Source: a virus
Direction: 5' to 3' (one strand)
Virus record (IMG/VR): IMGVR_UViG_3300038468_000223
Coordinates: 1 to 64,000 of that record
Length of the DNA: 64,000 bases
Numbering within the stretch: the stretch's first letter is position 1; each line of letters starts with the position of its first letter. Under the pieces are notes generated by a model, which was not told the origin of the DNA, did no database searches, and saw nothing but the letters and a program-made list of their open reading frames with translations. Positions 1,163-42,614 of the stretch are shown here, in pieces. The translations under genes were made by a program, and so were the position numbers.

Positions 1163-1701
1163 CGTTTCTTTCCCTTCAGCCACATCACGAGGAACCCCGC
1201 AGCGAAGCCGCCGACGACGATGAGGGCGTACTTGATGCCGGAGGCGGCCGCCGGCGAGACGACCCGCTGCACGAGCGTCGGCGCCCAGCGCACGACGGCG
1301 GCCTCCTGCAGCAGGGGGTAGGGGTTCACCGCGTCGCCGCCGTCCGGGTGGACCTCGAAGTGCAGGTGGTTGATGCCGGTCTGCGCGGCGTTGCCGGTCA
1401 TCCCCACGTAGCCGATCACGTCGCCGGCCTTCACCGCACGAGCCTTGCCCTCGAACCCGTTCAGGTGCGCGTAGTAGTAGCGCGTGCGGTCGGGAGCGTT
1501 GAGGGTGGCGACGTTGCCGCCGAGCGGGTCGGTGCCGAACTTCACCGCCCCGTCGTCGACGGCGACGACCGGGGTCCCCTCGTCGGCCAAGATGTCGGTC
1601 CCCTTGTGCGTGCGTCCGCCGCTGCGCGGGGCGCCCCACGTGTCCGAGTAGCTCGGGGAGCCCTTGGGCGTCGAGACGACGGGGAAGACCTGCATCGGCA
1701 T
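1159..1701 (-). CDS. M23-family (lysostaphin-like) zinc endopeptidase, tail-anchored
   Basis: 180 residues. The LytM/M23 core is complete: GGRTHKGTDI supplies the first zinc His and Asp, and HLHFEVHPDG the HxH pair, with the usual GYVGMTGNA glycine turn. These enzymes cut peptide bridges of peptidoglycan. There is no N-terminal signal peptide; instead a C-terminal helix (YALIVVGGFAAGFLVMW, residues about 158-174) ends in KGKKR. There is no Shine-Dalgarno sequence: TAGAGT lies six bases before the ATG, matching five other leaderless-looking starts in the window. First gene of an ATGA-coupled trio. Confidence 0.9.
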   Translation of the reverse strand: MPMQVFPVVSTPKGSPSYSDTWGAPRSGGRTHKGTDILADEGTPVVAVDDGAVKFGTDPLGGNVATLNAPDRTRYYYAHLNGFEGKARAVKAGDVIGYVGMTGNAAQTGINHLHFEVHPDGGDAVNPYPLLQEAAVVRWAPTLVQRVVSPAAASGIKYALIVVGGFAAGFLVMWLKGKKR

Positions 1702-1713
1702 GGGTCTACTCTA
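1702..1713 (-). promoter_or_regulatory. Leaderless late-type promoter -10 (TAGAGT-N6-ATG)
   Basis: On the minus strand TAGAGT (1713-1708) sits exactly six bases before the M23 start, as in five other envelope-type genes. No convincing -35 box is visible. Confidence 0.5.
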
Positions 1714-1742
1714 CCCGATCCGTGCGGCGCGGGCGCGCGCCG

Positions 1743-2493
1743 TCACGCGCGGAGCCGCGCGACCAGCTTGTCGAACTCGGTCTTGTCCTTCTCCACGACG
1801 ACGAACCGTCGTCCGAGCTTGCGCGCCGCCGCCGCCGTGGTCCCCGAGCCCGCGAACGGGTCGAGCACCCACTCCCCGGGCTCCATGTGCACCTCGATCG
1901 GGATCTCGCAGACCCGCTCGGGCTTCTGCGCCTCGTGGATCTTGCCCTTCAAGATCTCGGTGACGTCGGTCCAGACGTTGGACCTGCGGAGGTACTTGCT
2001 CTTGGCCGGGTACTTCGCGTTGAACCCGGCGTAGCCGCGCTCCTCCTCGAGCAGCGGCACGACGAACCGACGCGGCTCCTTCGGATCGCCGAGGACGAAG
2101 TACGCCAGCTCCTCGCGCGTGAAGAGGTAGCCCCACTGGATGCCGTACCCGCGGCGCTTCTTCCAGGTGATGAGCGTCGAGAGCTGGAAGGGCGTGAGGC
2201 GCTCCACCACCGATAGGTAGCGAAAGAACGGCCGAAAGGTTGGCCTGCCGATGCCGCCCCAGACGTAGAGCGCGCCGCCCGGCAACGTCAGCTTGCTCAG
2301 GCAGATCGTCCAGTCGACCATCCACCCGATCGTCGACGTCGATGTCGTCCCAAGCCGCGGACACGATGTTGCCGTAGGGAGGGTCGGCGATGACGAGGGG
2401 GAAGCTTGGTTGCCTCGCGCAGATCGCCAGCACTCCCGGGCTCGGGAAGGTCCCGCGGATGGCAATGCCGTCGGGGAAGGTGACGGTCTTCAC
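1743..2493 (-). pseudogene. N6/N4 DNA methyltransferase (DpnA/M.MboII type), broken by a +1 frame change
   Basis: Starting at the GTG at 2493, the frame gives PLVIADPPYGNIVS, the catalytic DPPY motif of DNA amino-methyltransferases, then breaks near 2325-2335. The next frame continues with VDWTICLSKLTLPGGALYVW, a KRRGYGIQWGY target region and the SAM-binding end EWVLDPFAGSGTTAAAA, closing at 1743. Motif order (IV first, I last) is that of beta-class enzymes. The region is 751 bases, one more than a multiple of three, so a single extra base explains the break. Either a sequencing error or a real inactivating mutation. The GTG start overlaps the lipoprotein stop (GTGA). Confidence 0.85.
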
Positions 2494-2870
2494 TTCGGCA
2501 CGCAGATGTTGGCCGCCTCGTAGCAGCAACGCGCCGCCGGACACGGGCACCAGATCAGGACGTCACCGGCGAGTTCGACCTGCACCTTCTGGTAGTACTC
2601 GAGCGTCGCCGGACAGACGGCCCCGCCGGCGTCGCGGGCGTCGGGCACGTCGACGTCGCGAGCGTCGGGGGCGCCGGCATCGGTAGGGGGCGGCGGCACC
2701 GAACCGTCGGCGCCGTCCGGTGACACGCCCGCGTCCTCGCCGCCGGCGTCGCGCCCGAGGCCGGCGCCGCCCTCCGGCCCGTCGAAGAGACCCTCGGTGA
2801 ACGGGGACCCACTGCACCCCGCGAGGCCCAGGAGCCCGACGACCAACACCCAGTGCACCCCGACGTTCAT
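2490..2870 (-). CDS. Cys-rich Asp/Gly-rich lipoprotein, family copy 1
   Basis: 126 residues. A lipoprotein signal peptide ends VVGLLGLAGC, so the mature protein should be lipid-anchored. A long low-complexity Asp/Gly/Ala/Pro linker follows, then a compact C-terminal module CPATLEYYQKV..WCPCPAARCCYE..CVPK. The same module occurs in the gene at 20011, and a relative at 42182. Function unknown; disulfides are likely outside the cytoplasm. The acidic linker style is common in Myxococcota lipoproteins. ATGA overlap with the small gene upstream. Confidence 0.75.
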   Translation of the reverse strand: MNVGVHWVLVVGLLGLAGCSGSPFTEGLFDGPEGGAGLGRDAGGEDAGVSPDGADGSVPPPPTDAGAPDARDVDVPDARDAGGAVCPATLEYYQKVQVELAGDVLIWCPCPAARCCYEAANICVPK

Positions 2871-3019
2871 CTCGAAGTCCCTTCCGTTCGAACCTTGATC
2901 AGCATCTCGATCGCTTCCGGCGTCATCGTTCGGGCGCACCGAAGACACTCCGAGTACGACCAGCCGGTTCGCTCTTGAAGCGCTCGCGTCTGCTTCTTCT
3001 CTTTGCTCTTCATCGTCAT
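2867..3019 (-). CDS. Small basic protein (RTGWSYSECL motif)
   Basis: 50 residues starting MTMKSKEKK. The middle reads LQERTGWSYSECLRCART, a short pattern I associate with small phage and plasmid proteins of unknown role. It is translationally coupled (ATGA) to the lipoprotein. An upstream in-frame ATG at 3169 is less likely because the added residues look out of frame. Confidence 0.5.
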   Translation of the reverse strand: MTMKSKEKKQTRALQERTGWSYSECLRCARTMTPEAIEMLIKVRTEGTSR

Positions 3020-3026
3020 GATGAGT

Positions 3027-3371
3027 CTACCTCGGTACTCTTGTGAGAAGTTCGACGAACTCGCTACAGTCGGGTGGTTTCGTACTGTGATGGTCTTCAC
3101 GAAGATGACCGCAACGCGAACAAAGTTCGGTGGCGAAGACCTCCATGCGTGTTCGATACTCTTGGTCACCTCGCGAACCGTATCCGCCTTCGTCGGCCTC
3201 CCATGATCTTCCGCGTGCTTTGCAGCGCGAACCGCATCGAGGACATGCGACCTCGTTCAGCTCACATTGTGTCGGCACACGAACGTCAAAGACCAGCCCA
3301 CCGAGATCGGCCGATGACTTCGGAGGATGGAAGCAAGAGTGACATTCGAACGAGTACCAGTGATCACTCAT
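3027..3371 (-). CDS. Double zinc-ribbon protein
   Basis: 114 residues. Cysteines form CHSC with CPRCGSRCK and, near the C-terminus, CSRCGHLREDHH with a later DC, so two small zinc-binding knuckles are likely. Base composition is lower in GC than the flanks. Role unknown; such proteins often bind nucleic acids or modify host polymerases. Confidence 0.65.
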   Translation of the reverse strand: MSDHWYSFECHSCFHPPKSSADLGGLVFDVRVPTQCELNEVACPRCGSRCKARGRSWEADEGGYGSRGDQEYRTRMEVFATELCSRCGHLREDHHSTKPPDCSEFVELLTRVPR

Positions 3372-3392
3372 GAACGTCGAGGCCCCACAGGG
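3372..3392 (+). repeat. Dispersed 20-bp motif M, copy 1
   Basis: GAACGTCGAGGCCCCACAGG, a variant of the consensus GAACGWCGRGGSTCCCACTG found 16 times in the window. Confidence 0.6.
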
Positions 3393-3395
3393 TGT

Positions 3396-3707
3396 TTACG
3401 CGAACGGCTCAAGGAAGGTGAGATCCTTGCCGAGTTCGGCGGCGCGGGCGATGCCGCGGCGGGTGGTCTCGCCGATGTAGCCGTTGTAGTTGACGACGAA
3501 GACCTCGCCGGCGAGCGCGACCTTCGCGAGCATCAGCTCGTCGAGCATCTCCTTCTGCACGCTGGTGATCGGCACCATGTCGACGTGGTGGAAGAAGCCC
3601 GCGACCAGCACGATCTTGCCCTTGAGGGTCTCGCGCTGCGCGATGCCAAGGTGGAACTGCTTGAACCTGGTGGAGCCGATGATCGCGACGATCGTGGGCC
3701 TGGGCAT
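3396..3707 (-). CDS. Nucleoside 2-deoxyribosyltransferase-like protein
   Basis: 103 residues. It begins PTIVAIIGSTRF and ends with VVNYNGYIGETTRRGIARA, the Rossmann-like layout of the deoxyribosyltransferase / DUF4406 group in which an Asn/Tyr-Gly loop precedes a helix. Such proteins hydrolyse or transfer N-glycosidic bonds of deoxynucleosides, or act as sensors. TGATG overlap with the upstream HTH gene suggests one message. Catalytic residues cannot be fixed by eye. Confidence 0.55.
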   Translation of the reverse strand: MPRPTIVAIIGSTRFKQFHLGIAQRETLKGKIVLVAGFFHHVDMVPITSVQKEMLDELMLAKVALAGEVFVVNYNGYIGETTRRGIARAAELGKDLTFLEPFA

Positions 3708-3895
3708 CAGGCACCTCCTTCGAGTCGCGCTTGCACGTGCGTGATCGTGGCGGACCGCACCTCGAGCCCCGCGAGCATGCGGGTGATCGTCGAGTGGGAG
3801 ATGCCGAGCTTCTTCGAGCTGTTCCTCAGCCCTTCCCTGTCGACGAGGGCTCGGAGCTTGATCTGCAGGGCCTTGGGTGTGATCGCGTCGCTCAT
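3707..3895 (-). CDS. Small helix-turn-helix DNA-binding protein
   Basis: 62 residues. The stretch LRNSSKKLGISHSTITRMLA is a standard helix-turn-helix with the G at the turn. It is divergent from the Cas12m-like effector; the 90-bp gap between them holds an inverted repeat that could be its operator, so it may control both directions. Confidence 0.65.
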   Translation of the reverse strand: MSDAITPKALQIKLRALVDREGLRNSSKKLGISHSTITRMLAGLEVRSATITHVQARLEGGA

Positions 3896-3907
3896 GTCGA
3901 TCGGAGC

Positions 3908-3985
3908 TTGACACCGTTCGTTCTAGGAGTCAACATCCGAACCGTTGACAGTCGCCGCGAACAAAAATCGTCTGTTGGAGGAGCC
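3908..3985. promoter_or_regulatory. Divergent promoter/operator region before the Cas12m-like gene
   Basis: TTGACA occurs at 3908-3913 and 3945-3950, and GTCAAC (3929-3934) with GTTGAC (3944-3949) makes an inverted repeat with a 9-base spacer. The second TTGACA is well placed as a -35 for the effector, though its -10 is weak. GGAGGA (3978-3983) is the ribosome site for the ATG at 3986. Confidence 0.45.
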
Positions 3986-5668
3986 ATGTCTCTGCGTACC
4001 GGGTCGACTCCACGACCTGTAGGCGAATCAGTCGAAGGACACAGCGGAGGATCTGCCGCGGAAGAGAGCCCCTCGACGCTCGCCAATCGCCCCTCTGGGG
4101 CCACTCCAACTGCCTCCCCGCAAGGGGAGTGCGGAGACGTGGCTCCTTCAGCAGACGATGAAGTCATCTGCGCCAAGTGCGGCAAGCCGCAGGTCCACAA
4201 GGACGACGGCAAGAAGCAGGAGGTCTGCTCCTGCATCAAGATCGTCCGGGCTACGACGCGGTTCCAGATCGACCTGACGTCGCTCAGCCCCAAGGCCCCG
4301 CCGGGGGCCAAGCGGCCGCTGTCGCCGGCGGAGAAGGCGCTGCGCGACGCGCTGCAGGACGTCGCCGTGCTCGCGACGACGGCGCGCAACGTCGCGATGC
4401 GCGCGAACTACGGCGCCGACTCCAAGAGCCTCGACGACTACCTCCTCGAGCACGGCGAGATGCCGCGGAAGTCTGCGGACTGGTGCACGACGAAGCTCTA
4501 CTCGTACCCGAAGATCCGCGCGGCGGTCCCTCGGCTCTCGAGCAACATCGCCGCCACGCTGCAGCGCGAGATCGATCGGAAGTGGTCGCAGGTCCGCTTC
4601 GACGTCCTCATCCGCCAGATCGACTCGTGCCCGCACTTCCGCGTCGGCCAGCCGGTGCCGGTCCCCGCATCCTCGCTCAGGATGCGCAAGCGCGAGGACG
4701 GCGCGCTCGTCCTGTCCTTCTCGCTCTACTCCGGGGCCCACGACGGCGTGAAGAGCGTCGAGGTCCCGATGATCGCGCGCGACGACCACCAGCGGGAGCT
4801 GCTGGAGAAGATCGCGACGGGCGAGTACAAGTACGGGCAGGCGATGATCGAGCGCGATCGGCTGCGGCCGTCGCGGTGGTACCTGCGCCTGGCGTACACG
4901 CGCAAGGTCCCCAAGCGCACCGAGGGGATCGTGGCCGGCGTGCATCGCGGCATCAAGACGTTCCTCTGCGCCGTCACCGCCGACGGCGAGCAGTGGCTCT
5001 ACGACGGCTACGACATCGAGGCGTACCTGAAGCAGGTGCAGCGCCGCCGGCGTCGGATCCAGAACAGCGTCGTCGCGAGCGCACGCGTCGGCCACGGGCG
5101 ACGCCGCGTGCTCACGCCGATCTCGCATCTGCAGGACAAGGCGGCGCGGTGGCGCGCGACGCGGTGCCAGGTGATCGCGCGGCGCCTGGCGCAGTGGCTC
5201 TCGGACCGCAACGTGCGGCGCGTCTACCTCGACGACTTCGTCGGCATCCGCAACGGGCTGCCCGAGCAGCTCGAGGGGGGCCAGACGACCTGGCAGCGGA
5301 TCCAGGAGTGGCCCTTCTACGAGATGCAGATGCGCTTGATCGCGTGCCTGCAGGAGTACGGCATCGAGACCGTCGTCCGGCCCGCGGCGTACATCTCGCA
5401 GCGGTGCCCCCGCTGCGGTCACGTCGCGCAGGAGAACGTCGACCTGAAGTTCTGGTGCGTGCGCTGCACGAAGTGCCGGTTCAAGAAGCACCTCGACATC
5501 AGCGCCGGCATGAACCTCATCGCGAGCGGCGAGGCGGCGTCGAAGGGCGAGCCTAGTGATTTCCTGCGGATGCAGGAGAAGATAGAGGAGGTCCGGAGGG
5601 GCGCTCGCAGAGCGAGTCGCAAGAGCACGAAATCAAAGGAGGCCGACGCGCGGGGGCGGAAGGCGTGA
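3986..5668 (+). CDS. cas12m: Cas12m-like type V CRISPR effector with degenerate RuvC triad (H-D-D)
   Basis: 560 residues from the ATG with GGAGGA upstream. N-terminal disordered Ser/Pro-rich part, then a C-x2-C...C-x-C cluster (C62, C65, C81, C83) and a helical middle. The C-terminal half is a TnpB/Cas12 RuvC: RuvC-I is GVHRGIKTF (H320 where Asp is expected), RuvC-II is VYLDDFVGI (D416 where Glu is expected), a zinc ribbon with C474, C477, C491 and C494, and RuvC-III HLDISAGMNL (D504). Size and H-D-D pattern fit the Cas12m (V-U1) group, reported to bind DNA and block transcription without cutting it. The gene leads straight into a repeat array on the same strand and its TGA lies in the first repeat. 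No cas1/cas2 nearby. A TnpB-family alternative is less likely given the array. Confidence 0.85.
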   Translation: MSLRTGSTPRPVGESVEGHSGGSAAEESPSTLANRPSGATPTASPQGECGDVAPSADDEVICAKCGKPQVHKDDGKKQEVCSCIKIVRATTRFQIDLTSLSPKAPPGAKRPLSPAEKALRDALQDVAVLATTARNVAMRANYGADSKSLDDYLLEHGEMPRKSADWCTTKLYSYPKIRAAVPRLSSNIAATLQREIDRKWSQVRFDVLIRQIDSCPHFRVGQPVPVPASSLRMRKREDGALVLSFSLYSGAHDGVKSVEVPMIARDDHQRELLEKIATGEYKYGQAMIERDRLRPSRWYLRLAYTRKVPKRTEGIVAGVHRGIKTFLCAVTADGEQWLYDGYDIEAYLKQVQRRRRRIQNSVVASARVGHGRRRVLTPISHLQDKAARWRATRCQVIARRLAQWLSDRNVRRVYLDDFVGIRNGLPEQLEGGQTTWQRIQEWPFYEMQMRLIACLQEYGIETVVRPAAYISQRCPRCGHVAQENVDLKFWCVRCTKCRFKKHLDISAGMNLIASGEAASKGEPSDFLRMQEKIEEVRRGARRASRKSTKSKEADARGRKA

Positions 5669-7074
5669 GCGGGTGGTTGGAGTTTGGAGGCGCTGCGTGG
5701 TGGACCTCACGATCGATCCAAGGACCGGCGGAAGGCGTGAGCGGGTGGTTGGAGTTTGGAGGCCGGCGAGCGTCCAGCGGCGCGCGCTCGCGGCACGACC
5801 CCAGGCGGAAGGCGTGAGCGGGTGGTTGGAGTTTGGAGGCGTCACGAGGCGCCGCAACGTCTCATCACTGGCGCGGGGGCGGAAGGCGTGAGCGGGTGGT
5901 TGGAGTTTGGAGGGGAAACTAGGAGGTCCCCCCCGAACGGAGGCGGAAGGCGTGAGCGGGTGGTTGGAGTTTGGGAGGTGGTGCGCGAGCCGAAAGAACG
6001 CTTCGCTGACGTGCGGCGGAAGGCGTGAGCGGGTGGTTGGAGTTTGGAGGCACTTGCTCGTGAGCGCGTCGACGAGCCCTTCCGGGCGGAAGGCGTGAGC
6101 GGGTGGTTGGAGTTTGGAGGCAGGCGTCTTGGCCGCACTGGGACTCTTGGCGGAAGGCGTGAGCGGGGTGGTTGGAGTTTGGAGGATGGCGTACACCGAC
6201 GAGGAACTGAGCGAGATCTAGGCGGAAGGCGTGAGCGGGTGGTTGGAGCTTGGAGGATCGCCCGCGTCCGCGCGCGGCGGAAGGCGTGAGCGGGTGGTTG
6301 GAGTTTGGAGGGACTGACGCCGCATCACCGCTCTGGGGTTGTGGCGCAGACGGAAAGCGGGAAGGCGTGAGCGGGTGGTTGGAGTTTGGAGGGTCGAGAA
6401 GCTCCCTGCGTTCTATGTGAACCCGACGAGACGGAAGGCGTTGGAGTTTGGAGGATGGCCAAGGGAAAGAACCAGCACGTCGTCCCCCAGACGGAAGGCG
6501 TGAGCGGGTGGTTGGAGTTTGGAGGTCTTTGCGCGTCCGCCCGAGCACATGTCGATGGCCGAGACGGAAGGCGTGAGCGGGTGGTTGGAGTTTGGAGGAA
6601 CTCCTCGCGGCGCCGTGCAAGCTCGGCCGGCGTGAACGGGTGGTTGGAGGTTTGGAGGGCCGCCGGGCGCTATGCGTCGCGCTCGCGACGTCCGAGCCGG
6701 CGAAGGGCGTGAGCGGGTGGTTGGAGTTGGGAGGATGTGGATCCTCCGACGACGGCGGGGTGGCGTTCATCCGCGCCCGCGCCGGGCGGAAGTCGTGGTT
6801 GGAGTTTGGAGTGGAGTGGAGGATCGCCTTCGTGCGATGGCGTAAGTGGGGGAGTTTGCTTGGCGGAGGGAGGGAACGTTGGAGCTGGAGGAGCGTGACG
6901 GCGTCGACGCCGCAGTGGAGGGCGGGTGGTTGGAGTTTGAAGGCACGGTGGCGTTCATCCGCGCCCGCGCCGGGCGGAAGGCGTGAGTGGGTGGTTGGAG
7001 TTGGAGGCTCGACGACGGATGGCTGCCGAAGCACCCGCGGCGGAAGGCGTGAGCGGGTGGTTGGAGTTTGGAGG
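5655..7074 (+). CRISPR. CRISPR array, about 20 repeats of 36 bp
   Basis: Repeat 1 is 5655-5690: it begins GGCGGAAGGCGTGAGCGGG and ends GGTTGGAGTTTGGAGG. Near-identical copies start at 5727, 5804, 5878, 5942, 6015, 6085, 6149, 6221, 6276, 6357, 6490, 6563, 6699 and 7039; shortened or mutated copies are near 6431, 6626, 6784, 6921 and 6972. Spacers differ from each other and are mostly 28-41 bp, with one of 19. Decay is concentrated from 6600 to 7010, so this end is probably the old (trailer) end and transcription runs from the effector. Segment 6759-6792 is duplicated at 6947-6980. No leader-side adaptation genes are present. Confidence 0.9.
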
Positions 7075-7139
7075 TACGTCCGGAGACGCATCAAGCGGAC
7101 TCTCGGCTCTCGCAAGAAGAAGCCGTCGCCCCACGTCGA

Positions 7140-7433
7140 ATGAGCGAGAACATGCGTACTACATGGGTCGCCAGAGACGTGCAGGCCGGTTGCTTCGCCT
7201 GCTACGGCTTCGAGGCGCACTGGTTTGGTGGAAACGCACAAGGTGTCGCAGCTCGCCACCATGATGCAACCGGCCATGAGACTTGGTGCGATGTCGCAAT
7301 GTCGATCCGATATGGTGGCGACGGCTCAACCGCCTCACACCAAGAAGCGCCCCCGGGATCGCGCCCCACGTTGAACAAGGTGAACCGCAGATCGACCGGC
7401 CGGAGCGGAAGTAAGAGAACGACGCGTGTATAA
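7140..7433 (+). CDS. Small C2H2-like zinc protein, first gene after the array
   Basis: 97 residues. The pattern CFACYGFEAHW..ARHHDATGHET is that of small Cys-Cys-His-His proteins common in phages, in which the HxxxTGH turn binds zinc. The C-terminal third is basic and may be disordered. No good ribosome site precedes it, so an internal Met5 start is possible. The stop lies inside the palindrome at 7425-7439. Confidence 0.5.
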   Translation: MSENMRTTWVARDVQAGCFACYGFEAHWFGGNAQGVAARHHDATGHETWCDVAMSIRYGGDGSTASHQEAPPGSRPTLNKVNRRSTGRSGSKRTTRV

Positions 7434-7506
7434 TACACGTCGCCGCAGTTGGAGGGAGGCGGAGGTTCCGCGTGCCCCAGGAGGTGGGGCTAATGTATAT
7501 TAGAGG
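7425..7506 (+). promoter_or_regulatory. Palindrome and promoter region of the recombinase gene
   Basis: CGTGTAT-A-ATACACG (7425-7439) is a perfect inverted repeat containing TATAAT. Downstream, CTAAT and ATTAG flank a second AT-rich element near 7492-7505 with TATATT. Either could be the -10 of the integrase, and the palindromes could be its operator or an attachment-site arm. GAAAGGAAG near 7509 is the ribosome site. Confidence 0.45.
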
Positions 7507-7527
7507 TCGAAAGGAAGTGCTCGCACG

Positions 7528-8520
7528 ATGAAGCCCGCCGATCTCGCCCTCGCCGCCCTCTCCGGACCCGAGGCTCCGCTCGCGCCGCTCGAGGCGACGC
7601 GCGCGGACCAGAACCCGGTCTTGGTCTACCTGGCCGGCCGCAAGAGCGAGCGCACGCGCCAGACCATGCGCCAGGGCCTCGAGCGGCTCGCGCGCGCCGG
7701 CGGTTGGGCGAAGTACCCCGTCGAGGCCATCCCCTGGCACCAGATGACGTTCGCGCACACCGACGCGCTGCGAGCGGCGCTCACCCGGCAGGTCTCGCAG
7801 TCGACCGTGGCGCTGTCGCTCGCGGCGCTGCGCGGCGTGTCCAAGACCGCCTGGAAGCTCGGCCTCGTGACCTACGAGCAGCACGCGCGCGCGACGGCGT
7901 GGGACCTCGGTGGGACCCCAGACCGCCTCCCTGCCGGACGCGAGATCTCGCCGCCGGAGATCGTCAAGCTCCAGGCCTACTGCACGGCACAGCCGACGCC
8001 GTACGGCGAATTTCTCAGCGGGATCTTCGCGGTGCTCTTCGGCGCCGGCATGCGCGCGCACGAGCCCGGAGGGCTCACGATCGACGCCTACGATCCGGAT
8101 GAGCACTCGGTGCGCTTCGTGCGCAAGGGGCGCAAGCAGGCCGAGATCCCGCTGGGCGGCGCCGAGGCGGCCGCGCTCGAGGCCTGGATCGCGGTCCGCC
8201 GCACGCTCGACGTGCCCGCGACGTGGCTCTTCCCGCGCGTGCAGCGCAACGGCATCGTGCGCGCCCAGCCGATCACGAACAAGGGGCTCTGGCACCTCTG
8301 CAAGGCGATCGGCGAGGCGGCGAGCATCCGCGAGTTCAGCCCGCACGACACGCGCCGAACGTACTGCACGCGCCTGCTCAGCTCGGGGCTCGACCTGGCG
8401 ACGGCGCAGCGCCTCATGAGCCACTCGAGCCCGGCGACCACGGTCCGCTACGACAAGCGGCAGGCGCGCGCCGACGCCGAAGCGCGGCAGCGCGTGACGA
8501 TCTGGGGAGGTGAAGGATGA
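7528..8520 (+). CDS. Tyrosine recombinase (XerC/D-like integrase)
   Basis: 330 residues. The N-terminal half is a SAM-like core-binding domain (SERTRQTMRQGLERLARAGG onwards). The catalytic domain holds the expected residues: Arg in FGAGMRAHEPGGL, the H-x-x-R box in SPHDTRRTYC, His in LMSHSSPATT and the nucleophile Tyr in TVRYDKRQA. It joins or resolves DNA at a specific site, so the element may integrate or resolve multimers. The next gene overlaps by ATGA. Confidence 0.9.
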   Translation: MKPADLALAALSGPEAPLAPLEATRADQNPVLVYLAGRKSERTRQTMRQGLERLARAGGWAKYPVEAIPWHQMTFAHTDALRAALTRQVSQSTVALSLAALRGVSKTAWKLGLVTYEQHARATAWDLGGTPDRLPAGREISPPEIVKLQAYCTAQPTPYGEFLSGIFAVLFGAGMRAHEPGGLTIDAYDPDEHSVRFVRKGRKQAEIPLGGAEAAALEAWIAVRRTLDVPATWLFPRVQRNGIVRAQPITNKGLWHLCKAIGEAASIREFSPHDTRRTYCTRLLSSGLDLATAQRLMSHSSPATTVRYDKRQARADAEARQRVTIWGGEG

Positions 8521-9197
8521 ACTGTCCGATCTGGAAACGGACGGCGGATGGTGCGACCGTCAGTCGATGCTGCCTACGCCTGCCCGACGGCAAGACGTGC
8601 CCTCGACATGGCGACGTTTCCGCCGCCGTCGAGACGTTCAGCCAGACAGGTCAGTTGACCGAGGAGGGGACGCTCAACAAGAGCGTCGAGGCGGCGATCC
8701 ACCTCGTCATGGGCTACGGTGGTCCGTTCGAAAAGACTGCAATCGCCGGGCTTCGCAGCCTCATCGGCTCCAACAACTCCAGCTTCGTCGCCCGGCTCAA
8801 AGAACAACTTCGACCCCACGGCATCGAAATCATCACAGCCACACTGGGGCGCGTTGAAGGGCGACAGGCGTGGGTGCTCTCGATGAAGCTCCCGAACGGT
8901 CACGTCACGACGATCGACGCCGTACTCGAGCCGGCCAAGGACCCGTTTTCTTGCGACGCCGAGATCGCCGATCGCGTCGTGATGCACGTGCTCGGCCGCA
9001 GGCGTTCCGCGCCAACGCACGGTGTCCCGTCGGACGCGATCCACCTCGAGCTGTCGCCCGTCGAAGCCGCCACGCTCCGCGCGGCGCTCGACATGATGCA
9101 GCGCCACCCATTTTCACGGGATTTCAGAGTTCTGGTCGACGATCACGGCCCCAACATCCTGGCGCGGATCGCCGGGCGCCTCCGAAGCCGGTCATGA
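8517..9197 (+). CDS. Unknown 226-residue protein with N-terminal Cys cluster
   Basis: The first 35 residues hold CPIWKR..CCLRLPDGKTCPRHGD, a likely zinc knuckle. The middle (about 60-160) alternates strands and helices; the C-terminal part contains LSPVEAATLRAALDMM. No known family is recognised. It is coupled to the integrase by an ATGA overlap and to the next membrane protein likewise, so it may be a co-expressed accessory. Confidence 0.6.
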   Translation: MNCPIWKRTADGATVSRCCLRLPDGKTCPRHGDVSAAVETFSQTGQLTEEGTLNKSVEAAIHLVMGYGGPFEKTAIAGLRSLIGSNNSSFVARLKEQLRPHGIEIITATLGRVEGRQAWVLSMKLPNGHVTTIDAVLEPAKDPFSCDAEIADRVVMHVLGRRRSAPTHGVPSDAIHLELSPVEAATLRAALDMMQRHPFSRDFRVLVDDHGPNILARIAGRLRSRS

Positions 9198-9370
9198 CCG
9201 CACTCGCGTTCTACGTCGCCGGCGTGGGCCTCTCGCTGGCGTTTCTCCTCGCACGCTACCGCGAGGCGCCGTGGGTCGGCGCGCTCCTGGCACTGGTCTG
9301 GCCGCTGACGCTGGCGTTAGGCTTGATCGTCGTGATGGGCAACGACCGGCGGAACGACGAGGGGCACTGA
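9194..9370 (+). CDS. Small two-helix membrane protein
   Basis: 58 residues. Two hydrophobic segments, LAFYVAGVGLSLAFLLA and VGALLALVWPLTLALGLIVV, separated by a short charged turn, with a polar C-terminus. ATGA overlap upstream and TGATG overlap downstream. Holin-like in architecture, but so are many unrelated small proteins; no functional claim. Confidence 0.6.
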   Translation: MTALAFYVAGVGLSLAFLLARYREAPWVGALLALVWPLTLALGLIVVMGNDRRNDEGH

Positions 9371-9792
9371 TGGCGGGGACCGCGGGCCCCACGATTCCGT
9401 GGGGGCTGCATTTGGAATGGGGGGCGACGGTCCAGCCGTTCGGGACGACGGCGGGAACGGCGACGATCTACGTCTATCAGGCCTCGCGGCAACGGCTCGG
9501 CGACGAATTCGATCGGCTCCTCAGCGACTTCGACCGGGCCGTCGAGCGATCACTGCCGGCGCGCCGGCGCCGCGATCCGCTGACGCACCAGGCGGTTTCG
9601 GAGCCGACGTGCGGGCCGCCGATCGTGCCGCACTCCGTGGTCCCCGTCGCACTCTGCGACGCCCGGCTCGATCCGCGGCCCGCGGCGCCGCGGGAGCGGC
9701 CCGCAGACCGCTTCGCCAGGCTCGCTCGCCCCCACGGGCGCGAGCGTCGACCCGAGCGCGGGACGCGGCGCCTTCGCGCCGTCGCCCGCTAG
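9370..9792 (+). CDS. Unknown protein, arginine-rich C-terminal half
   Basis: 140 residues. The first 70 residues look like a normal soluble protein (GLHLEWGATVQPFG..DEFDRLLSDF); the rest becomes Arg/Pro/Ala-rich and may be disordered or reflect a frame change. Last gene before a long non-coding stretch. Confidence 0.5.
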   Translation: MAGTAGPTIPWGLHLEWGATVQPFGTTAGTATIYVYQASRQRLGDEFDRLLSDFDRAVERSLPARRRRDPLTHQAVSEPTCGPPIVPHSVVPVALCDARLDPRPAAPRERPADRFARLARPHGRERRPERGTRRLRAVAR

Positions 9793-9852
9793 CCTCGCGG
9801 CCCGCGGCCGGCGCTCGCCTCGCGGCCCGCGGCCGGCGCTCGCCTCGCGACC
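9793..9852. repeat. 25-bp tandem repeat, two full units and a partial third
   Basis: Units beginning CCTCGCGGCCCGCGGCCGGC start at 9793, 9818 and 9843. They directly follow a stop codon and begin the non-coding region. Confidence 0.7.
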
Positions 9853-9870
9853 CGCCGGCGCCCGGCACTA

Positions 9871-9890
9871 CCAGTGGACCCCCGACGTTC
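9871..9890 (-). repeat. Dispersed motif M, copy 2
   Basis: Forward strand reads CCAGTGGACCCCCGACGTTC; the following bases GTCGGTCCAC can pair back on it. Confidence 0.6.
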
Positions 9891-10181
9891 GTCGGTCCAC
9901 ATTGGTGCGCGTTCGTGCGTTTCGCTCACGACCGTCGACAGTGGCTTTTTGAGGCCTTTCCTAGATAGTTCTGAGCGTGATCTGACATGCATCTAAGCCC
10001 CCTTTCGTGCGACGCCTACCGCGATTACCCGCGAACGCCTTCCGGTATGGGGCGCGTCGAAAGGGTCCGGGTCACCTGATCGGGCACATCCAAACCCTTC
10101 CAGTAGAATCCGCACCAAGCGGCCTCATCAATAGATTGCGCTACGGTAGAGCTTGGCGCCCGGCCGCGCGGGCGCGCCGGG

Positions 10182-10269
10182 GGGCGCCCGGACGCCCCCA
10201 CGGCGGCGCTAGGACGCCCCAGGATGCGCCCGGGGCGCCGAGTACAGGCGCCCGGGCGTCCGGGCGCCC
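10182..10269. repeat. Perfect 16-bp inverted repeat with 56-base loop
   Basis: GGGCGCCCGGACGCCC at 10182-10197 is the exact reverse complement of 10254-10269. The loop itself contains partly self-complementary GC-rich words, so a large cruciform or RNA fold is possible. Confidence 0.7.
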
Positions 10270-11001
10270 CCTCGCCCGTCCTAGCCCGTCCAGCCGCTAA
10301 CTACGCGGAATCATTGAGCTTTTTTGGTGCGTACTTGGGTGCGCTAGGGCGCGTAAGGACCTACGCGGTCGTGATCTAATGATTTCGCGTACTTAGCGGA
10401 TCGCGCCCGCGTAGACCCTTGCGCACCCTAGCGTAACCCCGCGAAACTACACGCGCCCCACGTTGGCGCGCCGCCTGCAACGGCGGGGGTTGCGCTGGCA
10501 AATAGCCGGCGCTTCCAGGGCCCCGCGGTCGCACGCGGGCGCGCCACCCTGGCGACCGGCGGGAACCGCGCACAAGCGCGCGGACGGGCCCGCACTAGAC
10601 CGGCCCACCTGAGAGGGCGACGAGAGAAGTAGCGCTCGCACGCACAAGGAATCGGACGATCTCCGACGGAAATTAGACGCGCGAAACCGGCGCGTCGAAA
10701 GTACGGGATCCCAAGGGATAGACGTACACCGCGGAGTGAGCGGCACCGAAACTGAGGACAAGGATCGTGCTCCGCACGATCGAAGTCTAAGCGACTAGGT
10801 CAAGCACGTTGAACGCGTGCGGATCGATCGCGAGGCGAGTAGAGCGCGAAATCATCTCGGAATGTCGCTGAGCCTTCATAGGGCGATGAAGCTTGAACGC
10901 GCTGGGTAGGGTGCGAGGCCGGAGAGATCGATCGTCAACGTTTACGCCAGGATCGATCCAAAGCTAGGGGAGTTCTCCCTGAAAGCTTCACGAAGCGAGA
11001 T

Positions 11002-11190
11002 ATGAAACGTTCGTGTCACCTTGGCAAGGGCTGCGACCGTTACAAGTCGTATAGAACGAACGCGGAGTATCTCAGCGCTGTTGAGCGGCAAGCCTACGAC
11101 CTAAACTCTAGGCTTGTTCGTGGCGAAGGAAGGGATTGTAAACTCTGCGAATCCGTGCGAGTAGTCGTTCATCTAGATCGTCCCTGGTAG
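11002..11190 (+). CDS. Possible small Cys-rich protein
   Basis: 62 residues with CHLGKGC near the start and CKLC near residue 48, a possible zinc site. Base composition is lower in GC than around it. Upstream sequence forms small hairpins and lacks a strong ribosome site. Kept because codon structure and the paired cysteines look real. Confidence 0.4.
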   Translation: MKRSCHLGKGCDRYKSYRTNAEYLSAVERQAYDLNSRLVRGEGRDCKLCESVRVVVHLDRPW

Positions 11191-11244
11191 GGTCCGATAG
11201 AGTTTGGACGGCGAAACCGCGGCGAGAAGCAACGCAAGACACTT

Positions 11245-11332
11245 GAGCCGAATCGTCCGTGTATGCGCGACGGTTCGGCTCGTGTCGAGCGATGCGAGAA
11301 GCGGCCGATGCTATCGACCGCTTCTCGCATCG
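11245..11332 (+). terminator. Two strong adjacent stem-loops
   Basis: GAGCCGAATCGTCCG (11245-11259) pairs with CGACGGTTCGGCTC (11268-11281), and CGATGCGAGAAGCGG (11290-11304) pairs perfectly with CCGCTTCTCGCATCG (11318-11332). GAAAGGGGAAC follows. No U-run; these could be transcript ends or the leader structures seen in the module at 11630. Confidence 0.5.
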
Positions 11333-11407
11333 TTCAGTCGGTGTGAAAGGGGAACCTAGTCACGCATCGTTCTAGAGCGGCTCGTATGCCGCGAGAACGA
11401 TCGATAG

Positions 11408-11623
11408 GTAACAGTCGGATACGGGAAAGCAAATCATCCGGAAAATGCACGGGATGACGCCCGAAACGCGGTCGACGCCTCGGCACTGGAGACGTCCTTC
11501 GACGTCGCGGCGACGATCGCGGCGCTCGAAGCGTCGATCGACGCCATCCGCAGGGGCGACGGCTCGAAGGCGGCCGATCGCGCGGGCGAGGCGTTCGCGC
11601 GCCTCGCGTTCTTTCACCGCTAG
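11408..11623 (+). CDS. Coding-like frame without a usual start codon
   Basis: From the stop at 11405 this frame stays open for 71 codons and its second half reads DVAATIAALEASIDAIRRGD and AGEAFARLAFFHR, a believable helical protein, yet no ATG, GTG or TTG begins it. A stem-loop module follows its stop, as it does after the neighbouring real genes. A frame change from the ATG at 11445, or an unusual start, may explain it. Confidence 0.35.
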   Translation, partial: VTVGYGKANHPENARDDARNAVDASALETSFDVAATIAALEASIDAIRRGDGSKAADRAGEAFARLAFFHR

Positions 11624-24121: not shown

Positions 24122-24476
<355 letters not shown>

Positions 24477-28555: not shown

Positions 28556-29361
28556 TGTTCGCCGAGCCCTTCCTCCGCTGGGCGGGCGGCAAGCGCAAGC
28601 TGGTCCCGCAGATCCAGGCGCTCCTGCCGAAGCGGTACGGCACCTACCACGAGCCCTTCCTCGGCGGCGGGGCTCTGTTCTTCGCGCTGCAGCCGCAGCG
28701 AGCGCGCCTGAACGACATCAACGCGCCGCTCATGACCACGTACCGCACCGTCCGCGACGACGTCGAGGGGCTCATCAAGCTCCTCCGGCGGTACTCGCGC
28801 AACGAGGAGGAGTTCCTCCGCGTCCGGAAGTTCAACTTCGGTCGCGGCTCCGCCGCGCGGAAGGCCGCCGACTTCATCTACGTCAACAAGTGCTGCTTCA
28901 ACGGACTCTATCGTGTCAACCAGAGTGGGCGATTCAACGTCCCCTTCGATGGCACCAAGACCGATCGGAACGTCATCTGCGACGCAGAGCTGCTTCGTGC
29001 GGTGAGCGCGGCGCTGCAGAATGCGCGCTTCTCGCGCGCGCCATTCGACTCGACGACGGTCACCGCGCGGATCTCCAAGGGGGACCTCGTCTACTTCGAT
29101 CCGCCGTACCACCCGCTCACCAAGACGAGCAACTTCACCGCGTTCCACCAGAACGGCTTCGACGGGGAGGATCAGAGGCGTCTGCGCGACGTCGCACTCG
29201 AGCTGAAGAAGCGTGGTGCCTTCGTCGTCATCAGCAACAGCAACGCCCAACTGATCAGGGAGCTGTACGCCCACTTCAAGATCGAGGAGGTGATGGCCGC
29301 ACGGTCGATCAACTCCGACGCGGAGGGGCGCGGCAAGATCAAGGAGCTGCTGATCACATGA
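28555..29361 (+). CDS. dam: DNA adenine methyltransferase (Dam family)
   Basis: 268 residues with the full D12/Dam pattern: FLRWAGGKRKLVPQI (SAM motif I), YHEPFLGGGALFFAL, LNDINAPLMT, YVNKCCFNGLYRVNQSGRFN (the loop before target recognition) and catalytic LVYFDPPYHPL (DPPY). It methylates adenine N6, probably in a short palindrome such as GATC, though the site is not readable from sequence. Intact, unlike the methyltransferase at 1743. Coupled by overlaps on both sides. Confidence 0.93.
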   Translation: MFAEPFLRWAGGKRKLVPQIQALLPKRYGTYHEPFLGGGALFFALQPQRARLNDINAPLMTTYRTVRDDVEGLIKLLRRYSRNEEEFLRVRKFNFGRGSAARKAADFIYVNKCCFNGLYRVNQSGRFNVPFDGTKTDRNVICDAELLRAVSAALQNARFSRAPFDSTTVTARISKGDLVYFDPPYHPLTKTSNFTAFHQNGFDGEDQRRLRDVALELKKRGAFVVISNSNAQLIRELYAHFKIEEVMAARSINSDAEGRGKIKELLIT

Positions 29362-42460: not shown

Positions 42461-42462
42461 GG

Positions 42463-42536
42463 CGCGCCGTGCAGGGGTCGAACCTGCAGCCTTCCAGCTC
42501 TAACGACTGGACGCTCTACCTTTGAGCTAACAGCGC
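42463..42536 (-). tRNA. tRNA with 9-base anticodon loop (anticodon uncertain)
   Basis: Cloverleaf on the minus strand: acceptor GCGCTGT with ACGGCGC (one T-G pair), D arm GCTC/GAGC, anticodon stem TCCAG/CTGGA, T arm GCAGG-TTCGACC-CCTGC, discriminator G, CCA not encoded. The anticodon loop is TCGTTAGAG, nine bases. If the outer T-G pairs, the loop is seven bases with TTA in the centre but no T at position 33. Confidence 0.8.
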
Positions 42537-42537
42537 G

Positions 42538-42614
42538 TGGTGGGAGGGGCTGGACTTGAACCAACGACCTCCTCGAGACGAGCCCGAGGCGCTCTGACAC
42601 TGAGCTACCCTCCC
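42538..42614 (-). tRNA. tRNA with 9-base anticodon loop, CCA encoded (anticodon uncertain)
   Basis: Acceptor GGGAGGG with CCCTCCC, D arm GCTC/GAGC, anticodon stem CCTCG/CGAGG, T arm GTTGG/CCAGC around TTCAAGT, discriminator A and encoded CCA. The loop is GGCTCGTCT, nine bases; pairing of the outer G-T would leave TCG in the centre. Only one base separates it from the other tRNA. Confidence 0.82.

What the first reader, a model, noticed from the sequence alone, without database searches (positions are those of the whole stretch)
3986..7074. Single-effector, cutting-deficient-looking type V CRISPR system
The 560-residue effector has RuvC motifs with H320, D416 and D504 where active nucleases have D, E and D. 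As I recall, this H-D-D-like pattern and size match Cas12m, which binds DNA and blocks transcription without cutting. No cas1/cas2 lie nearby, and the first repeat overlaps the effector stop, so effector and guide RNA likely share one transcript. On a phage-like element it could silence competitors or host genes.
Basis: partly seen in the sequence, partly recalled or inferred. Interest (0 to 1): 0.92.

Follow-up and report, generated by a model that had tools for sequence, protein, structure and literature searches.

The report
Nuclease-dead viral Cas12f with guide array
A virus of bacteria carries a small CRISPR system whose cutting enzyme (a Cas12f, not a Cas12m) has lost its catalytic residues but keeps its guide array and probably its companion RNA, so it most likely switches genes off by binding DNA rather than cutting it.

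Summary
An effector gene is followed on the same strand by about 22 repeats (5656-7074), the first overlapping the effector's stop codon. Its RuvC triad is H-D-D where active relatives have D-E-D. No cas1, cas2 or sigma region-4 domain was found in the whole 105.5-kb IMG/VR record.

Three corrections. (1) It is not Cas12m. Sequence, profile and predicted fold all place it in Cas12f (type V-F/V-U3, AsCas12f-like), on a very long branch; the Cas12m2-like HDD triad is convergent. (2) The 560-residue length is probably wrong. Codon-position GC puts the start at GTG 4139 (509 aa). (3) The 138 nt taken as its N-terminus is the best match in the whole record to a tracrRNA profile built from relatives, so it probably encodes a diverged tracrRNA. 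That step is suggestive, not proven.

Most likely function: RNA-guided binding without dsDNA cleavage, silencing targets. No protospacer was found, so targets are unknown. Spacer lengths (20-45 nt) are far more irregular than in relatives. RuvC inactivation occurred at least four times among sampled Cas12f relatives. Verdict: a new variant of a known kind.

The parts
4139..5668 (+). Nuclease-dead Cas12f-like effector (509 aa from GTG 4139; 560 aa if ATG 3986 is used)
   Evidence: PADLOC Cas12u3 1.3e-47 and Cas12f 9e-47; PDB AsCas12f 1e-29; AF2 model pLDDT 85.7, Foldseek top AsCas12f; GC3 shift at 4139; gene call start 4139
4943..4945 (+). RuvC-I catalytic position: His (CAT) instead of Asp
   Evidence: aligned to AsCas12f D225; the only H-D-D among 145 aligned sequences
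5231..5233 (+). RuvC-II catalytic position: Asp (GAC) instead of Glu
   Evidence: aligned to AsCas12f E324
5495..5497 (+). RuvC-III catalytic position: Asp, conserved
   Evidence: aligned to AsCas12f D401
4169..4234 (+). Putative N-terminal zinc ribbon (CAKCG...CSC), an extension not seen in the Cas12f relatives looked at
   Evidence: sequence; N-termini of relatives lack it; model confidence low here
4001..4138 (+). Candidate tracrRNA: hairpin 4001-4018; stem 4022-4026/4080-4084 followed by AA; hairpin 4089-4101; anti-repeat-like 4103-4115; hairpin 4114-4129
   Evidence: top position of 210,734 in the whole record for a two-part profile built only from relatives' tracrRNAs; unfiltered CM hit at 4001-4018, E 0.055 in 10 kb, 0.35 in 64 kb; non-coding composition; fold
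5656..7074 (+). CRISPR-like array, ~22 copies of a 35-nt repeat, spacers mostly 20-45 nt; degenerate and partly duplicated from ~6620 on
7528..8520 (+). Tyrosine recombinase/integrase just downstream of the array (neighbour)
   Evidence: PF00589 8e-26; phrog_1 3e-27
3707..3895 (-). Small HTH-like ORF divergent from the tracrRNA/effector (neighbour)
   Evidence: ORF list; no Pfam match; HTH reading is by eye

Best explanation
A viral type V-F (Cas12f, V-U3-like) CRISPR system whose effector has lost the RuvC active site. A tracrRNA (4001-~4138), the effector (4139-5668) and the guide array (5656-7074) lie in tandem on one strand and are probably co-transcribed. The effector, with tracrRNA and crRNA, binds DNA matching a spacer and blocks transcription there instead of cutting (CRISPRi-like silencing). 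Shown here: Cas12f lineage, substituted triad, array, absence of cas1/cas2. Suggested here: the tracrRNA. Inferred: expression, DNA binding, silencing. Targets are unknown; competing mobile elements or host genes are both possible.
For: Cas12f membership: PADLOC Cas12u3 1.3e-47, AsCas12f by phmmer 1e-29, Foldseek AsCas12f 2.5e-29, tree places it on the Cas12f side of a branch with 99% SH-aLRT. Loss of catalysis: D225H and E324D, plus loss of the conserved N-H pair (N394C, H395Q), while all four zinc cysteines are kept. The same HDD triad in Cas12m2 holds one metal ion, does not cut dsDNA and still silences (PMC10442227). Guide machinery kept: array of about 22 repeats in the same position and strand as in the nearest relatives; tracrRNA candidate. 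The ORF is open with GC3 0.97. Inactivation of RuvC arose at least 4 times among these relatives, and dead relatives L065, L073, L080, L083, L059 and L087 keep a recognisable tracrRNA, so losing the nuclease does not mean losing the guide system.
Against: No protospacer was found in the element, phages or plasmids or, for one spacer, IMG/VR, so targeting is untested. The tracrRNA candidate scores far below real ones (1.6 against 37-76 bits), and the anti-repeat energy is not exceptional in such GC-rich DNA. The effector branch is very long (2.9) and it keeps only 23 of 46 columns conserved in relatives, so decay is possible. Distal repeats are degenerate.
Confidence: 0.6

Rival explanations
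1. A true Cas12m (type V-M) system: crRNA-only, HDD RuvC, DNA-binding silencer.
For: HDD triad of the same kind as Cas12m2; compact size; no cas1/cas2.
Against: No Cas12m chain hit by the protein at E<=10 while AsCas12f hits at 1e-29. In the family-profile search Cas12m scores 1.8e-6 and 2.4e-12 against 1e-179 for AsCas12f. Fold ranks Cas12m2 27th, TM 0.38. Triad spacing 96/88 fits AsCas12f (99/77) and not Cas12m2 (168/94). A tracrRNA-like element is present.
Confidence: 0.03
2. A decaying remnant: a viral Cas12f locus that lost its nuclease by drift and is no longer functional.
For: Long branch and poor retention of conserved columns; degenerate, irregular, partly duplicated distal array; a methyltransferase about 2 kb away looks frameshifted; no targets found.
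Against: Full-length open frame with strong codon-position bias; confident fold; all four zinc cysteines kept; proximal repeats near-identical. Both catalytic changes reproduce the functional Cas12m2 triad rather than random residues.
Confidence: 0.2
3. A dedicated regulator of host or viral genes (TldR-like or dCas12f-sigma-like), with fixed guides rather than immune memory.
For: Element has no adaptation genes; dead RNA-guided proteins on phages act as regulators (TldR, PMC13418256); a natural dCas12f is in the PDB (9n9c); 3 of 19 spacers begin exactly with ATG, p 6.5e-4, a post hoc test.
Against: About 20 different spacers rather than one guide; no sigma region-4 domain in the record; no match of spacers to own genes above chance; host unknown.
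Confidence: 0.12
4. Still an active nuclease using the HDD triad or another activity such as RNA or ssDNA cleavage.
For: RuvC-III Asp is retained; catalysis was not tested.
Against: In Cas12m2 the HDD triad binds one Mg2+ and gives no dsDNA cleavage, and restoring DED did not bring it back there (PMC10442227); further active-site neighbours are lost.
Confidence: 0.05

Closest known systems
AsCas12f1 (Acidibacillus/Sulfoacidibacillus, type V-F; locus L064 here)
   Same: Best sequence and fold match; array downstream on the same strand; TNB zinc finger; tracrRNA with a comparable series of hairpins
   Different: AsCas12f has D225/E324/D401; here H/D/D. Here the candidate tracrRNA is upstream of the effector, there is an extra N-terminal CxxC...CxC segment, and spacers are irregular
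Cas12m2 (type V-M)
   Same: HDD RuvC triad; compact; no dsDNA cleavage expected, silencing by binding
   Different: Different Cas12 lineage; no detectable sequence match by phmmer; fold only distantly similar; different triad spacing
Natural dCas12f (PDB 9n9c/9n9m/9n9o/9n9q; from memory, associated with a sigma factor and RNA-guided transcription)
   Same: Cas12f lineage with dead nuclease
   Different: No sigma region-4 domain in this record; this locus has a long array; not a close sequence match (9n9c absent)
TldR (TnpB-like nuclease-dead repressors, some phage-encoded)
   Same: RuvC-dead RNA-guided protein on a mobile element, expected to repress
   Different: TldRs use a single adjacent guide and derive from TnpB; here a CRISPR-like array with a Cas12f
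Phage-encoded V-F/V-U systems (Al-Shayeb 2020, PMC7162821; Alicyclobacillus phage MMB025, locus L005)
   Same: Compact type V effector plus array on a phage, no cas1/cas2
   Different: Most of those keep catalytic residues (PMC7162821; L005 is DED)

Membership tests
Cas12m (type V-M) | Effector sequence homologous to Cas12m above other Cas12 | tested here: not met
   phmmer: AsCas12f 1e-29, no Cas12m at E<=10; family profile 1.8e-6 and 2.4e-12 for Cas12m against ~1e-179
Cas12m (type V-M) | Cas12m fold as best structural match | tested here: not met
   Foldseek ranks 1-8 are Cas12f; Cas12m2 rank 27, TM 0.38-0.42
Cas12m (type V-M) | HDD RuvC triad (clade 2, e.g. Cas12m2) | tested here: met
   H320/D416/D504 against H317/D485/D579
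Cas12f (type V-F, V-U3-like) | Cas12f sequence and fold, with TNB zinc finger | tested here: met
   C474/C477/C494/C497 kept
Cas12f (type V-F, V-U3-like) | Adjacent CRISPR array, same strand | tested here: met
Cas12f (type V-F, V-U3-like) | tracrRNA of the family's conserved architecture | tested here: inconclusive
   Top-ranked position in the record lies directly upstream but its score is well below true members
Cas12f (type V-F, V-U3-like) | D-E-D catalytic triad (defines active Cas12f nucleases; the subtype itself is assigned by effector phylogeny, and dead members exist) | tested here: not met
   HDD
Cas12f (type V-F, V-U3-like) | Asymmetric homodimer | not testable with these tools
   Only a monomer was modelled
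dCas12f-sigma RNA-guided transcription | Associated sigma factor | tested here: not met
   No Sigma70_r4_2 match in the 105.5-kb record; other sigma domains not searched
TldR | Single TnpB-type guide RNA, no CRISPR array | tested here: not met
   Array of ~22 repeats

The most novel reading that the evidence does not exclude
A Cas12f independently evolved the same HDD, cut-free triad as Cas12m2 and, freed from cleavage and from Cas1-Cas2 sizing, runs a viral multi-guide gene-silencing array with relaxed guide lengths, some guides aimed at start codons, and with its tracrRNA moved in front of the effector in one operon.
Probability: 0.15. Interest if true: 0.82.

Novelty: new variant of a known kind. 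Interest (0 to 1): 0.6.

Why it matters
If right, the HDD triad of Cas12m2 was reached a second time from a different Cas12 lineage, which points to HDD as a functional DNA-holding state and not only a broken site. It would also be a natural multi-guide CRISPR-interference system carried by a virus. Together with several other RuvC-dead Cas12f relatives found here on integrase- and ParAB-bearing elements or viral contigs, it suggests that mobile elements repeatedly turn Cas12f from a cutter into a binder. Those are compact natural repressors worth testing.

Tried and rejected
Single-protein scans for close relatives in IMG/VR and GTDB genomes found none; only ~25%-identical Cas12f relatives exist. 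Anti-repeat by strict alignment: best local hit 10027-10044 (4 of 500 shuffles as good in 8 kb) in a non-coding stretch, not tracrRNA-like by profile, kept as an alternative. tracrRNA between effector core and array (5500-5655), where the nearest relatives have it: duplex with the repeat no better than shuffles, 142/300. Duplex energy alone does not discriminate in this GC-rich DNA. CM R2 gave the same 4001-4018 hairpin only at chance level for the window (E 3.9), with an equal hit at 28927; the two-part profile is the better test. Spacers against own record, phages, plasmids: nothing above chance; repeat and one spacer in IMG/VR: nothing. Host search through DNA polymerase, integrase and tmRNA: no usable kin. 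Structure of a capsid candidate fragment: useless, pLDDT 33.

Full report
Where it is. The window is bases 1-64000 of a 105,511-nt IMG/VR virus record. I read the remaining 41.5 kb as L002-L004. The record has phage-type replication genes (family A DNA polymerase, prim-pol, helicases), an integrase, a tmRNA and 20-odd tRNAs. In the sample of proteins I scanned I saw no terminase, portal or tail hallmark except a transglycosylase/baseplate-like hit. 'Virus' rests on IMG/VR, and the host is unknown.

The observation. The open frame ends at 5668. The first 35-nt repeat (5656-5690) overlaps its stop codon, and about 22 repeat-like copies extend to 7074. Eight copies are exact and several others differ by one base; the part after ~6620 is degenerate and contains a duplicated spacer piece (6759-6785 and 6947-6973). 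They align with the AsCas12f1 catalytic residues D225, E324 and D401. Locus L064 encodes a 422-aa protein that matches the AsCas12f PDB chain in the printed alignments.

Which family. PADLOC gives Cas12u3 1.3e-47 and Cas12f 9e-47; Pfam gives the Cas12f1-like TNB domain. PDB by sequence gives AsCas12f 1e-29, OsCas12f and other Cas12f, and no Cas12m at E<=10. An AlphaFold2 model with 51 sequences has mean pLDDT 85.7. Its best PDB matches are AsCas12f (E 2.5e-29, TM 0.77), OsCas12f and SpCas12f; dCas12f 9n9c is rank 14, and Cas12m2 is rank 27 with TM 0.38. In a tree of 80 proteins the window falls on the Cas12f side of a branch with 99% support, on a branch of length 2.9, so its exact place is unsure. 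It is therefore a Cas12f-lineage protein and not a Cas12m. The HDD triad of Cas12m2 (H317, D485, D579; one metal ion; no dsDNA cleavage; PMC10442227) was reached separately here. Triad spacing also fits Cas12f (96 and 88 residues here; 99 and 77 in AsCas12f; 168 and 94 in Cas12m2).

Is it dead? Among 145 aligned sequences 134 are DED and the window is the only HDD. It also lost the conserved N-H pair (N394C, H395Q) and keeps 23 of 46 strongly conserved columns, including all four zinc cysteines. dsDNA cleavage is thus unlikely, by analogy with Cas12m2; this was not tested. RuvC inactivation is not unique: L065, L073 and L080 (FEF), L083 (TEH), L087 (HEN), L059 (NED), L138/L029 (DEN) and L012/L122 (DRD). 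The tree needs at least four changes.

Where the gene starts. Codon positions in 3986-4138 have GC 0.67/0.73/0.57, against 0.57/0.44/0.87 in 4139-4300 and 0.66/0.46/0.97 in 4301-5518. A codon-usage gene call starts at GTG 4139. The 51 residues before it are probably not protein. A good Shine-Dalgarno sequence in front of ATG 3986 (GGAGGA) speaks the other way, so the start needs an experiment.

The tracrRNA. Nearest relatives have a conserved, covarying tracrRNA close to the effector, usually 37-86 nt past its stop. A covariance model of it, searched without filters, has its best hit in window 1500-11500 at 4001-4018 (E 0.055; 0.35 over the window). Because that is one hairpin only, I built a two-part profile from relatives alone and scored every position on both strands of the whole record. 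The best of 210,734 positions, for the first part and for the sum, is 4000 on the effector strand, 139 nt before the GTG. A top hit within 1 kb on the right strand has a chance of roughly 1-2%. The stem after it sits in register with AsCas12f: CGA at the same distance, with the pair C-G replaced by G-C, then AA after the closing strand (register read by eye). Its score (1.6 bits) is far below those of real members (37-76), so I call it a candidate, diverged tracrRNA. A 13-base stretch at 4103-4115 can pair with GGGUGGUUGGAGU of the repeat, with some G-U pairs (by eye, supported by the duplex fold), but GC-rich DNA makes such energies unremarkable (rank 106 of 2828).

The array. In the relatives with arrays the spacer length varies by SD 0.4-1.6 nt (L135 excepted); here the repeat period has SD 7.3, and spacers run from 20 to 45 nt in the well-formed part. 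Cas1 and Cas2 are absent from the record, and so is a sigma region-4 domain. Three of 19 spacers begin with ATG (p 6.5e-4, but noticed after the fact). Extra-G variants in several repeats and a split methyltransferase nearby leave room for sequencing indels, but these cannot explain 25-nt differences in spacer length. No target was found.

How it probably works. tracrRNA, effector and array lie in tandem on one strand; no sigma-70-type promoter was found inside the locus, so one transcript from upstream is plausible but not shown. The mature complex would bind DNA beside an unknown PAM and block transcription. For binding-only silencers short guides can suffice: TldR represses with guides as short as 6 nt (PMC13418256). 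That would fit loose spacer lengths (inference). Phages are known to carry V-F and V-U systems without adaptation genes, and repression without cleavage has been proposed for phage systems lacking a nuclease (PMC7162821).

Context among relatives. The RuvC-dead clade members L065 and L080 lie between a tyrosine recombinase and ParA/ParB genes; L083 also has a neighbouring recombinase. L012 and L138 are in viral contigs. The window locus also sits beside a recombinase (7528-8520). This suggests dead Cas12f is kept by mobile elements, but I did not measure the association against active loci.

Verdict. Real, correctly spotted, misfiled. A new variant of a known kind: a naturally nuclease-dead viral Cas12f with Cas12m2-like HDD chemistry. 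The main open point is whether it is a working silencer or a decaying locus.

Noticed in passing
L065 1299-2618, L080 4692-5795 (ORF from 4476), L073, L083 4725-6044: Clostridial Cas12f clade with a destroyed RuvC triad (F-E-F or T-E-H) that keeps tracrRNA and arrays, next to a tyrosine recombinase and (L065, L080) ParA/ParB; L065 and L083 have two tandem tracrRNAs. Looks like a nuclease-dead Cas12f on partitioned integrating elements.
   Followed up: partly
L087 1475-4700: H-E-N Cas12f with at least three near-identical tracrRNA copies interleaved with its repeats.
   Followed up: no
L012 1-1599 (also L122): Viral contig with a D-R-D Cas12f-like effector and degenerate repeats upstream.
   Followed up: partly
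L125 and L050, tracrRNA on both sides of the effector: Two different tracrRNA copies, one upstream and one downstream of one Cas12f gene.
   Followed up: no
window 24122-24476: Complete tmRNA gene on the virus, tag ANDNITPQKAAA.
   Followed up: partly
window 42461-42614; L003 14133-18514: tRNA with TTA anticodon (would read the stop codon TAA) beside a tRNA-Arg, and a cluster of 21 tRNAs including one with TCA anticodon.
   Followed up: no
L002 5010-8240 (record 69010-72240): DNA polymerase A fused at its N-terminus to DUF4326, a YAcAr/SLOG domain and a uracil-DNA glycosylase.
   Followed up: no
window 1711-2550 (-): DNA methyltransferase apparently split by a frameshift (DPPYG part and C-terminal part in different frames), either a pseudogene or a sequencing indel.
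   Followed up: no
window 9970-11000: About 1 kb without clear genes, rich in possible hairpins, with an 18-nt stretch (10027-10044) complementary to the 5' half of the CRISPR repeat at 16 of 18 positions.
   Followed up: partly
window 6759-6785 and 6947-6973: Exact 27-nt duplication inside the distal array, a sign of recombination or decay there.
   Followed up: no
L005 2428-4308: Alicyclobacillus phage MMB025 carries a catalytically intact (D-E-D) Cas12f annotated as transposase, with two small repeat arrays upstream.
   Followed up: no
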